From the NCBI GenBank assembly GCA_031841125.1, contig CM063112.1, forward strand, positions 18,750,603 to 18,814,602: a DNA stretch of 64,000 bases, given 5' to 3'. Within the stretch, counting starts at the first letter, position 1; each line of letters begins with the position of its first letter. This DNA is from Acanthococcus lagerstroemiae (taxonomy: Eukaryota > Arthropoda > Insecta > Hemiptera > Eriococcidae). The notes under the pieces were generated by a model. The model searched no databases and was not told the origin of the DNA. It saw only the letters and a program-made list of their open reading frames with translations. This document shows, piece after piece, positions 24,687 through 51,627 of the stretch. Position numbers and translations under genes: made by a program.

Positions 24687-25010
24687 GATTTACTTTCAGT
24701 CATTGAAGCACCAAAACGTAAGGTTAAATGGTATTGTGGCACCAAAAATTTCGTTCAGGCACCAAAAATTGGTGCCACAACGTTTTTCAATGGGAATGAT
24801 CGCAAATGGCTAGTAATGCTATCTACATGCGATATACCAAAAATAGCGTTGGTGCCTATAGGGTGGTATTTCCATACTCATATACAAATTAGTGCGCAGT
24901 GTTTTTAACCAGATCGCGTTCGCTGTTATACAAATTATTTACTTGCAAGAGGTTCAGGCACCAGTGTATTTTATCGAATTGAATCGAAATAACATGCCAA
25001 CAGGCACCGA
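24687..25010. repeat. Cluster of GGCACC/GGTGCC motifs near arm end
   Basis: GCACCA or GGCACC occurs at 24708, 24738, 24758, 24957 and 25003, and GGTGCC at 24771 and 24851. The other end of the arm (37967-38075) carries TGGTGC/GGTGCC at 37967, 38003, 38042 and 38069 in the opposite sense. Several copies extend to CACTGGTGCC. Opposite orientation at two ends is what subterminal binding repeats of a DNA element look like, but no terminal inverted repeat is visible. Confidence 0.6.
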
Positions 25011-25187
25011 AACTTGGCAACCCGCTTTTCTAAAAATAGCTAATCCTAGAAGTAGAGTGTGTGAGTAAATACTACGAGACGTGCGTTCTTCTCTACAGCG
25101 TTGGTCGGCGTAAAGCAGCTGATTGAATAACGAAAGAATACAAACGTGGCTTCCTTCTCTGTTGGTTCCAACGGCGGCAACTTACAA

Positions 25188-25345
25188 TTTTCCCAAGGGG
25201 TGCTCGGACAAAATTTTATAACGTGAATTTAGAGGGGAGGGGGGAAAAATTTGGCAAAGAAGATCTTAATGTAATGAATTTTTTATTTTTGAGGAATTTC
25301 CCAAGGGGTGCTCAAAAAATCCCAAGGGGTGCTCGAGCCCCGGAG
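25188..25345. repeat. Three CCCAAGGGGTGCTC motifs
   Basis: The word CCCAAGGGGTGCTC occurs three times in about 150 bp (near 25192, 25300 and 25321), followed by GAGCCCCGGAGCACCC. The last pair can form a hairpin. It is probably part of a short dispersed repeat. The mirrored copy lies at about 50969-51126. Confidence 0.6.
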
Positions 25346-25730
25346 CACCCACAAATTTGCCGCCTATGGTTGGTTCAGCCTAAAACATGTAAAGAATGAA
25401 AATACTGTAATTATTAAGAGGATCTGCGTACGTAAATTAATTTTTCGTAAAAAATAACACGGAGGAGTGCATAAACAGTGTACTGTGAGGCATTCTTCGG
25501 CGCTCGTAAATGTTGTGATTATGTATTATTTTGAATGGGTCTTATCAGTATAATTATTTTGGCTGTTGGTTATGGTTTCGATTCTGTAAAATTGTACGTG
25601 ACGGACTGCATTTATTTGTCGAGTTGGTAAGCATCCTTATGAAGTTTTAACTGACAGTATGAAAATTTTACAGAAATATTAATAATTTAATGCGTGGTTT
25701 TGTGAATAGAATCCGTGCAATTCTGAAAAT

Positions 25731-25958
25731 ATGAGCAGGAGGAAGGAACAGCCGAAACGGATCAGAATACCGATACTACCAGTCCCAGCTGTGTCTAATT
25801 TAACAGAATGTATAAAAGTATTGGAAATGTTCGAATTTCAGGATGGACAGTTTGTTGGTCTGAACGTTACTCACTGGAAAGATAATTCCCTATGGGTATT
25901 GAAATTTATTTATGATGCATCGCAAAAACGTACTTCTCATTATAATCCGTGTCTATAG
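25731..25958 (+). CDS. Hypothetical 75-codon open frame, unrecognised
   Basis: The frame opens MSRRKEQPKRIRIP, with a basic N-terminus, and ends at a stop after NPCL. I recognise no domain. Weak points in favour of a transcribed region are a G|GTAAGC donor-like site upstream at about 25626 and a separate short frame at 26124-26207 that is rich in charged residues. Weak points against are the short length, the lack of similarity and the location in repeat-rich DNA. An identical copy is at 50356-50583 on the minus strand. Confidence 0.15.
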   Translation: MSRRKEQPKRIRIPILPVPAVSNLTECIKVLEMFEFQDGQFVGLNVTHWKDNSLWVLKFIYDASQKRTSHYNPCL

Positions 25959-49080: not shown

Positions 49081-49295
49081 CCAGGGACGTACCGAACAGA
49101 TTTCCTTGGTGGAGTGGGGGGGGGGGGGTAAAAGTTGTGGAAGTCCCAACTGACTTAACTCAGAATTCCCAAGTATCAAAGCAAAAGAAAATCTTTTAAC
49201 TTGTTGGATTTTCCCAACTCGCCTGACTGCTGAGTGAAAAATTCTTACGGAGGGGAGGAAAGGTTGCTCCCCCCCCCCATTGTACCGTTCCTGGA
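49081..49295. mobile_element. Miniature CCAGGGACGTACCG element (mirror copy)
   Basis: Mirror of 27018-27229 and 3 bp longer, entirely because of longer G and C runs. Confidence 0.7.
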
Positions 49296-50355
49296 CTAGA
49301 TATTTTTTTCATCTTCCCTTTCATCGATTTTCATAATTTTAGCTAGGTGTAGAATTTTTGTGGCCTTTTTTATTATCAGTCAGAGGAAATCGAGCAACAA
49401 CCCAATCTTCAAGTTCATAAGACGTAGGTATATGTAGATTCCTGTCAGATAAATCTCAATCAATTTCTCTTGGAGCATTCACCTAAAGTCTCCAAGGCTT
49501 CAAAAAAAAAAAAAAAGAACCTGTTGCAAATTGGTGATGTCAGATTCGATACACATCCCTAGTTTGCAACAGCGTGTTGCAAACTGGATCACGTAATATA
49601 TTTCGGTTCTAGTTCGCAACATTCGAGTATATTCAATTCTGAAAGGTAATAGCGGATAGTTTTTTCTTAAATTGTTGCTAAAAATACTTATAATTTTGAT
49701 AAAAGCTCTCTCCAGCGATTTTTATAATGTTGGAGCCATTTCTGAAACAAATTTCATCATGCCGTCATACCGTTCTTGTTATAGGAATATCGAGAAATCA
49801 AAGAATCAGCTGACTACGTTCAGTCAAGATTTTATTTTAAATTACAAACCACAGGTGAGAAGTTGGGCGAAGTATTTCACTGTGCTCAGGGAGCTGTCAG
49901 ATCCCTCTAAGAAATATCACAAATAAATTCTGCGGAATACAATCTTATTCTTATCACTTGAAGTTAAGGTTGTTTCAAACTGGGGTACTGTTGCAAACTG
50001 GCGCAACCACCCTATGTGAACTTAGGCTACACTAAACTAAAAGTCTAGAAAAATGAAACTTCATCGAACTCGAAGTGAAAATGCTTGAGATAATAATTGT
50101 AGGTTTATTTTACTTTCGGTTCCTTCACTTGTCTCTCCTTTTTTATTCTTCCATCTTCATCTCTTAAAACAGGGCCACCCAGATCCATCTTAAGTTCATT
50201 ATCAATTCAACACACCACACAGTAATACATTGTTTCATGACGGTACAAAATTCAACATAAATCCTTCCCAGCGAATAACCAGTGGGTAAAATATTTTTCA
50301 TGTAGGTACAATTCTAATCGATTTTCATAACGTACATCAACTAATGGAATGCTAC

Positions 50356-50583
50356 CTATAGACACGGATTATAATGAGAAGTACGTTTTTGCGATGCATC
50401 ATAAATAAATTTCAATACCCATAGGGAATTATCTTTCCAGTGAGTAACGTTCAGACCAACAAACTGTCCATCCTGAAATTCGAACATTTCCAATACTTTT
50501 ATACATTCTGTTAAATTAGACACAGCTGGGACTGGTAGTATCGGTATTCTGATCCGTTTCGGCTGTTCCTTCCTCCTGCTCAT
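50356..50583 (-). CDS. Hypothetical 75-codon frame (mirror copy)
   Basis: Mirror of 25731-25958 with an identical predicted peptide. The same reservations apply. Confidence 0.15.
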   Translation of the reverse strand: MSRRKEQPKRIRIPILPVPAVSNLTECIKVLEMFEFQDGQFVGLNVTHWKDNSLWVLKFIYDASQKRTSHYNPCL

Positions 50584-51627
50584 ATTTTCAGAATTGCACG
50601 GATTCTATTCACAAAACCACGCATTAAATTATTAATATTTCTGTAAAATTTTCATACTGTCAGTTAAAACTTCATAAGGATGCTTACCAACTCGACAAAT
50701 AAATGCAGTCCGTCACGTACAATTTTACAGAATCGAAACCATAACCAACAGCCAAAATAATTATACTGATAAGACCCATTCAAAATAATACATAATCACA
50801 ACATTTACGAGCGCCGAAGAATGCCTCACAGTACACTGTTTATGCACTCCTCCCGTGTTATTTTTTACGAAAAATTAATTTACGTACGCAGATCCTCTTA
50901 ATAATTACAGTATTTTCATTCTTTACATGTTTTAGGCTGAACCAACCATAGGCGGCAAATTTGTGGGTGCTCCGGGGCTCGAGCACCCCTTGGGATTTTT
51001 TGAGCACCCCTTGGGAAATTCCTCAAAAATAAAAAATTCATTACATTAAGATCTTCTTTGCCAAATTTTTCCCCCTCCCCTCTAAATTCACGTTATAAAA
51101 TTTTGTCCGAGCACCCCTTGGGAAAATTGTAAGTTGCCGCCGTTGGAACCAACAGAGAAGGAAGCCACGTTTGTATTCTTTCGTTATTCAATCAGCTGCT
51201 TTACGCCGACCAACGCTGTAGAGAAGAACGCACGTCTCGTAGTATTTACTCACACACTCTACTTCTAGGATTAGCTATTTTTAGAAAAGCGGGTTGCCAA
51301 GTTTCGGTGCCTGTTGGCATGTTATTTCGATTCAATTCGATAAAATACACTGGTGCCTGAACCTCTTGCAAGTAAATAATTTGTATAACAGCGAACGCGA
51401 TCTGGTTAAAAACACTGCGCACTAATTTGTATATGAGTATGGAAATACCACCCTATAGGCACCAACGCTATTTTTGGTATATCGCATGTAGATAGCATTA
51501 CTAGCCATTTGCGATCATTCCCATTGAAAAACGTTGTGGCACCAATTTTTGGTGCCTGAACGAAATTTTTGGTGCCACAATACCATTTAACCTTACGTTT
51601 TGGTGCTTCAATGACTGAAAGTAAATC

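What the first reader, a model, noticed from the sequence alone, without database searches (positions are those of the whole stretch)
24687..51627. A 27-kb near-perfect palindrome with no unique spacer
Two 13.4-kb inverted arms meet in the middle of (TA)57. More than twenty paired open frames translate identically, and every arm difference I could find is a homopolymer-length change. Arms this long with no spacer are highly unstable in most genomes. A real one implies very recent formation, gene conversion between arms or a special maintenance mechanism. An artefactual one is equally informative for anyone using this assembly.
Basis: seen in the sequence. Interest (0 to 1): 0.9.

Follow-up and report, generated by a model that had tools for sequence, protein, structure and literature searches.

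The report
Two mobile elements inserted tail-to-tail
The giant palindrome is two copies of a 13.4-kb mobile DNA element sitting back to back in an AT repeat of a large, apparently animal genome; related back-to-back pairs occur elsewhere in the same genome, so it is probably natural and not an unexplained mirror image.

Summary
In detail: two 13.4-kb inverted arms meet in an (AT)n array, with no clear substitution between them. The explanation changes. Each arm is one complete copy of a dispersed mobile element that lies in (AT)n microsatellites. Five pairs of elements touch. All five are tail-to-tail across an (AT)n array; no head-to-head or head-to-tail junction was found. One pair joins two different subfamilies, which folding one copy back cannot give, and two others have arms that differ by substitutions. 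The 25.7-kb form carries a 593-codon ORF that I read, by eye only, as a tyrosine recombinase, and an MSV199 gene related to one of an insect filamentous virus. Pfam and PHROGs did not support the recombinase reading. Whether both of the window's near-identical arms are really in the genome still needs reads; I put that at about 0.8.

The parts
24686..38089 (+). Element copy 1 (arm A): left end AGATTTACTTTCAG at 24686, right end of type R1 at 38062-38089
   Evidence: Full-length matches at four other places (C3, C116, C7:57.9 Mb, C1) that end at the same points; end motifs
38214..51628 (-). Element copy 2 (arm B), inverted, tail-to-tail with copy 1
   Evidence: Arm alignment; left end at C7:18802230 and right end at C7:18788816
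24586..24685 (.). Left outer (AT)n array, interrupted once, about 51 b from the element end
38090..38213 (.). Central (AT)n array between the two right ends
   Evidence: R-R junction with a 124-b gap
51629..51708 (.). Right outer (AT)n array, interrupted once, about 15 b from the element end, so not a mirror copy of the left array
24355..24579 (+). Left landing site: two copies of a repeat spaced 141 b that also flanks other copies of the family
51709..51843 (+). Right landing site: 135-b module that also flanks copies at C1, C9 and C8 beside (AT)n
24738..25008 (.). Subterminal GGCACC motifs at the left end (inward GGCACC also at the right end, 38003-38075 on the minus strand)
25761..26120 (+). 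Decayed copy of a gene that is an open 177-codon ORF in the 25.7-kb element at C2:53.39 Mb
   Evidence: tblastn, 38% identity, E 7e-24, stops inside; a second copy lies in arm B
28897..29070 (-). hAT C-terminal dimerisation remnant inside the arm; a second copy lies in arm B
   Evidence: Pfam PF05699, E 1.6e-7
29944..31027 (+). Internal repeat array (unit about 291 b), inverted against 34780-35843 inside the same arm at 89.5%

Best explanation
The window holds two non-autonomous, 13.4-kb copies of a mobile element family that inserts into (AT)n microsatellites. They sit tail-to-tail in one (AT)n array between two repeats that serve as landing sites. Shown: the arm is a complete, dispersed element bounded by (AT)n; tail-to-tail pairs recur; one is a pair of different subfamilies. 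Inferred: the full-length 25.7-kb member moves the family with its own recombinase, most likely a tyrosine recombinase that exchanges strands in (AT)n. Because (AT)n reads the same on both strands, insertion can go either way round. The second copy in the window came from the first, or from the same very recent source, and landed in the (AT)n beside the first one's right end. Direct tandem copies could be cut out again by the enzyme while inverted ones could not; that would explain the absence of head-to-tail pairs but not of head-to-head pairs.
For: The arm has full-length relatives at four other places with the same ends. (AT)n borders 17 of 18 inspected ends of nine single elements (the exception, C5, has a cut-off right end) and 6 of 6 further right ends. 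Several landing repeats are hit at the same (AT)n by more than one element, so the microsatellite was there first. Census: 37 complete elements; 10 of them form 5 touching pairs, all right end to right end, with gaps of 36-124 b; 0 left-left and 0 right-left junctions within 600 b. Of the 6 small-form single copies checked at the expected site, 6 were single. The pair at C8:19.90-19.92 Mb joins an R1-type and an R2-type element. The pairs at C3 and C7:40.8 Mb differ between arms by 10 of 817 and 7 of 818 aligned bases next to the centre. A single element at C9:17.1 Mb has the same two landing repeats on its two sides as the window pair has.
Against: The window's own arms show at most 1 substitution, as an artefact would. 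No reads were available. The pair at C8:29.79 Mb has a badly degraded consensus beyond its centre, so palindromes in this assembly are error-prone and some arm differences at C3 and C7 may be consensus errors. Recombinase identity rests on my reading of motifs: Pfam, PHROGs and PDB sequence searches gave nothing and the single-sequence model was useless (pLDDT 35). The search for recombinase paralogues did not complete. Head-to-head pairs, equally expected, were not seen.
Confidence: 0.75

Rival explanations
1. Artefact at this locus: the genome has one element here, and the assembly duplicated it as a mirror copy through the self-complementary (AT)n arrays or through a fold-back molecule.
For: Arms identical but for run lengths that long reads often get wrong, mostly poly-G/C. 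Fold-back reads are documented: about 0.55-0.6% of ONT genomic reads, virtually none in the PacBio HiFi sample (PMC12870357, passages), and common after whole-genome amplification (PMC6218980, passages).
Against: It needs two false joins, at the centre and at the right outer junction. The right outer array is not a mirror of the left one. Four other tail-to-tail pairs exist, one between different subfamilies.
Confidence: 0.18
2. The palindrome is itself one transposon of the fold-back type, with 13.4-kb inverted repeats, and moves as a unit with the two left ends as its termini.
For: All pairs expose left ends outwards. MuTAnT elements, Mutator-like fold-backs, sit in TA microsatellites (PMC4486113, part 1 of 4 read).
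Against: Most complete elements are single: 27 of 37. The right end also borders (AT)n on its own. In the three same-family pairs other than the window, arm differences are almost all private to one arm, and one pair is mixed. No pair was found twice.
Confidence: 0.07
3. An old palindrome kept identical by gene conversion between arms, as on sex chromosomes.
For: No clear substitution over 13.4 kb.
Against: Conversion would also even out run lengths in part; arms of the C3 and C7 pairs do differ; recency explains identity without conversion.
Confidence: 0.05

Closest known systems
MuTAnT (Mutator-like elements in TA microsatellites, Medicago; PMC4486113, part 1 of 4 read)
   Same: Insertion in (TA)n, arrays on both sides, short derivatives of a longer coding copy, inverted-repeat forms
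   Different: MuTAnT are 0.2-1.6 kb (coding copy 4.9 kb) with terminal inverted repeats and a mudrA-type transposase; here 7.4-25.7 kb, the two ends are not inverted repeats beyond short motifs, and no transposase family matched
Endogenous nimaviruses of crustaceans (PMC10871703, passages read)
   Same: Giant elements with genes of large DNA viruses inserted in microsatellites; sesarmid ones in (AT/TA)n; others carry tyrosine recombinases with a C2H2 zinc finger
   Different: Those in (AT/TA)n use a Ginger2-type DDE enzyme with a 46-b inverted repeat, and those with tyrosine recombinases use telomere repeats or 28S rDNA; genomes of hundreds of kb. Here 25.7 kb and, if read rightly, a tyrosine recombinase with (AT)n
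Cryptons, animal groups CryptonA and CryptonI (PMC3212892, passages read)
   Same: Tyrosine recombinase, no clear terminal repeats, non-autonomous derivatives
   Different: Recombinase identity here is not proven; the element carries other genes, is far longer than I recall for Cryptons, and sits in (AT)n
Starship giant elements of fungi (abstracts in listing only)
   Same: Cargo-carrying element classified by a tyrosine recombinase
   Different: Fungal only as far as listed; much larger; no link by sequence was tested

Membership tests
(AT)n-inserting mobile element (as in MuTAnT) | Copies at unrelated places, each bounded by AT arrays | tested here: met
   17 of 18 ends of nine single elements; 6 of 6 further right ends
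MuTAnT / Mutator-like | Terminal inverted repeats | tested here: not met
   No alignment of the two ends beyond 13-14 b subterminal words
MuTAnT / Mutator-like | mudrA-type transposase | tested here: not met
   No Mutator domain in Pfam scans of the arm or of the parts of the C2 element scanned: 6 frames of the arm, L039 from 4 kb on in 6 frames, L040 in 4 of 6 frames, L041 in 4 of 6 frames; introns could hide one
Tyrosine recombinase element (Crypton-like) | Recombinase with the R...[H]xxR...H...Y set | tested here: inconclusive
   593-codon ORF with matching boxes by eye; no Pfam, PHROG or PDB support
Tyrosine recombinase element (Crypton-like) | Circular intermediate | not testable with these tools
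   Needs reads or PCR
Fold-back transposon moving as a unit | The same palindrome at several places with shared arm-specific differences | tested here: inconclusive
   Differences near the centre are almost all private; one column is shared by C3 left and C7 right arms
Endogenous virus | Core virus genes | tested here: inconclusive
   Only an MSV199 gene with a viral relative was found inside the element; Pfam scans were partial, no capsid or polymerase hit
Fold-back sequencing artefact | No read crosses the centre into unique flanks on both sides | not testable with these tools
   No reads held

The most novel reading that the evidence does not exclude
A giant animal element with a tyrosine recombinase uses the self-complementary (AT)n as its attachment site, and right-end to right-end joining is a regular product of that reaction: dimers form by recombination at (AT)n, expose two left ends and may move on as a unit. 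This would be an animal counterpart of fungal Starships with a symmetric microsatellite target.
Probability: 0.25. Interest if true: 0.8.

Novelty: new variant of a known kind. Interest (0 to 1): 0.6.

Why it matters
It turns an alarming 27-kb palindrome into a testable case of how long palindromes arise: by a second element landing, inverted, in the (AT)n beside the first. The five-of-five tail-to-tail bias (chance about 0.001 if side and orientation are random, 0.03 if only inverted pairs survive) asks for a mechanism. The 25.7-kb copies with identical lengths suggest recent activity. A possible recombinase aimed at (AT)n would be of use to people who study giant elements, and the case warns users of assemblies that (AT)n-centred palindromes can be natural.

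Tried and rejected
Genes in the palindrome: rejected. The scans of all six frames of arm A gave one family above its cut-off, a hAT remnant; no tRNA and no Rfam family in the window.

Simple assembly mirror through (AT)n: my first idea; lowered once other copies and the mixed pair were found.

Polinton as the identity of the element: considered because both ends of the small form begin with AG; not supported. No polymerase or integrase hit, and the one domain seen in Polintons (phospholipase A2-like) lies outside the element.

Relatives in other collections: exact patterns in viral contigs and genome contigs gave 0 matches; the 593-codon ORF found no relative in viral contigs. A protein search with the decayed hAT piece found nothing. 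The 177-codon ORF found 1 unnamed relative.

Structure of the recombinase-like ORF (last 307 residues, alone): pLDDT 35, discarded, no fold search made.

Not done: the left-end census with mismatches, the search for an alternative haplotype of the right flank, the search for recombinase paralogues and the search for empty landing sites did not complete. Pairing matched one left end wrongly (C6:55802941; the true C6 element is 55806394-55816488); I corrected the size classes by hand.

Print: full-text searches for tail-to-tail or palindromic elements with microsatellite, tyrosine recombinase or Crypton terms listed no paper that I recognised as describing this; only listings were seen apart from the papers named.

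Full report
WHAT IS THERE. The window contains an inverted repeat of two 13.4-kb arms, 24687-38089 and 38214-51627, around an (AT)n array at 38090-38213, with further (AT)n arrays outside both arms. The arms differ in 16 alignment columns: run lengths of G/C tracts (6 of 9 runs of 6 or more), one of 79 A/T runs of 6 or more, a GG/GGG change, and one C displaced within poly-A. The arms hold no gene: no frame over 128 codons and one Pfam family above cut-off, a hAT remnant.

WHAT THE ARM IS. A 3-kb piece of the arm has 55 matches there, with 40 of 3173 candidates scored. Four other places carry the whole arm from end to end: C3:33.9 Mb, contig C116, C7:57.9 Mb and C1:83.1 Mb. Four more inspected places (C8:26.1, C5:22.2, C9:17.1, C6:55.8 Mb) have the same left end and, except the cut-off C5 copy, the same right end, with other middles. 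All eight left ends and seven of eight right ends abut (AT)n, and the flanks beyond are different. So the arm is a complete mobile element.

WHERE IT LANDS. Flanks of different copies are often the same repeat cut at (AT)n: C116 and C6; C1 and a C7 copy; C5 and C8; C3 and C6; and a 135-b module beside C1, C9, C8 and the window's right side. Different insertions in the same (AT)n of a repeat mean that the microsatellite was there before. The 135-b module borders right ends (C1, C9) and left ends (C8, window), so orientation is free. Some landing repeats are cut at varied points, so flanking bases can also be lost. I found no clean empty site; the search for one did not complete.

THE FAMILY. 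The exact left-end motif occurs 37 times, its reversed control 0 times; five more left ends come from one search, which scored 40 of 185 candidates. Right ends of type R2 number 27 (up to 3 mismatches, control 0) and of type R1 11 (control 0). Paired up, 37 elements are complete (one pairing corrected): 3 of 25,717-25,718 b, 6 of 13.4-13.5 kb including the window's two, 5 of about 10 kb, and 23 of 7.4-9.0 kb. Five left ends and one right end stayed unpaired. Of two such left ends fetched, C1:72.59 Mb holds only a fragment and C7:7.75 Mb shows no match to the arms beyond the motif.

TAIL-TO-TAIL PAIRS. Within 600 b of each other the end motifs make five junctions and no more: C3:52.45, C7:18.79 (window), C7:40.82, C8:19.91 and C8:29.79 Mb, each right end to right end with 36-124 b between them, which is (AT)n. 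Left-left or right-left junctions: 0. With four equally likely outcomes five of five has probability 0.001; if only inverted pairs are kept, 0.03. The census misses diverged left ends, so the bias is provisional. Six small-form copies were checked where a partner would lie: 6 of 6 are single.

ARE THE PAIRS REAL? At C8:19.9 Mb an R1-type element (right end 96.8% to the window's) faces an R2-type element (right end 100% to the C7:40.8 copy) across (AT)30. Folding one element back cannot give that. The C3 and C7:40.8 Mb pairs differ between arms by 10 of 817 and 7 of 818 aligned bases near the centre, and C3 by 15 of 1626 over a longer stretch. Part of this may be poor consensus, because the right arm at C8:29.79 Mb decays into G-rich junk. 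Inverted duplicates are known to be read badly by nanopores (PMC7229812, abstract); the sequencing method here is unknown. For the window itself the arms have at most 1 substitution, while the four other long copies differ from arm A by 24, 28, 69 and 69. The pair is therefore either very young or an artefact. Against an artefact: it needs two false joins, its two outer arrays are interrupted at different distances from the element, and a single element at C9:17.1 Mb sits between the same two landing repeats in the same order. I put 'real' at about 0.8.

THE LONG FORM. The copy at C2:53393614-53419330 (L039, L040, L041, kept apart) has (AT)n at both ends. It contains a 177-codon ORF whose decayed relative is in the window arm at 25761-26120 (38%, E 7e-24); a 371-codon ORF with an MSV199 domain above cut-off (E 4.6e-8) whose one named relative is a hypothetical protein of Microctonus hyperodae filamentous virus (64% over 49%); reverse-transcriptase pieces of a nested retroelement; and a 593-codon ORF near the right end. 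In the last one I recognise by eye an N-terminal C2H2-like finger and the C-terminal boxes of tyrosine recombinases, compared with motifs recalled from memory. Pfam to E 10, PHROGs and PDB sequences gave no support, and the single-sequence model failed. This identification is an inference.

HOW IT WORKS (INFERRED). The long form makes a recombinase that acts on element ends carrying GGCACC motifs (seen at both ends in inward orientation) and on (AT)n targets. Derivatives that lost the genes but kept the ends are moved in trans. Since (AT)n is self-complementary, both orientations insert. A second copy can use the (AT)n beside the first. Direct tandems could be excised again, inverted pairs could not; why only right ends meet is unexplained.

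KNOWN RELATIVES. MuTAnT elements of Medicago use TA microsatellites but have inverted repeats and a Mutator transposase (PMC4486113, part 1 of 4). Endogenous nimaviruses insert into microsatellites; those in (AT/TA)n use a Ginger2-like enzyme, those with tyrosine recombinases use telomere repeats or 28S rDNA (PMC10871703, passages). Cryptons are tyrosine-recombinase elements without clear terminal repeats in animals (PMC3212892, passages). What I found fits none in full, hence 'new variant of a known kind'.

HOST. Unnamed. Size, contig lengths (eight contigs of 60-84 Mb seen), CpG near expectation and hAT and MSV199 relatives suggest an invertebrate animal, perhaps an insect; this is a guess.

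Noticed in passing
L041:7258-7998 (-) and 6866-7342 (-), just outside the right end of the C2 element: ORF with a phospholipase A2-like domain (PF08398, E 5e-6) beside an ORF that looks by eye like an adenovirus-type protease: probably a Polinton-like neighbour.
   Followed up: partly
L040:2818-3930 (+): Open 371-codon MSV199 gene; an identical 358-residue protein (P0002) from an ENA source and an 82% one are in the protein collection.
   Followed up: partly
L028:1500-2201 (C8:29.79 Mb): Consensus beyond the palindrome centre degrades into long G runs, a sign that the assembly is unreliable inside some palindromes.
   Followed up: no
G000 C2:24.030-24.070 Mb: About ten partial copies of the arm's left part in the same orientation, many about 3.26 kb apart: a tandem array made from the element.
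   Followed up: no
29944-31027 and 34780-35843: Older inverted repeat (89.5%) of 291-b units inside each arm, and a second inverted piece 29135-29261 / 37579-37705.
   Followed up: no
10296-10988, 16774-20964, 53313-53982: Diverged tandem arrays in the flanks (units about 29/58, 1150 and 63/129 b).
   Followed up: no
3818-4651: Inverted repeat with arms of about 289 b at 90%, likely a small transposon.
   Followed up: no
whole window and arms: Unusually many poly-G/C tracts of 9-17 b; these, not poly-A/T, vary between the arms.
   Followed up: partly
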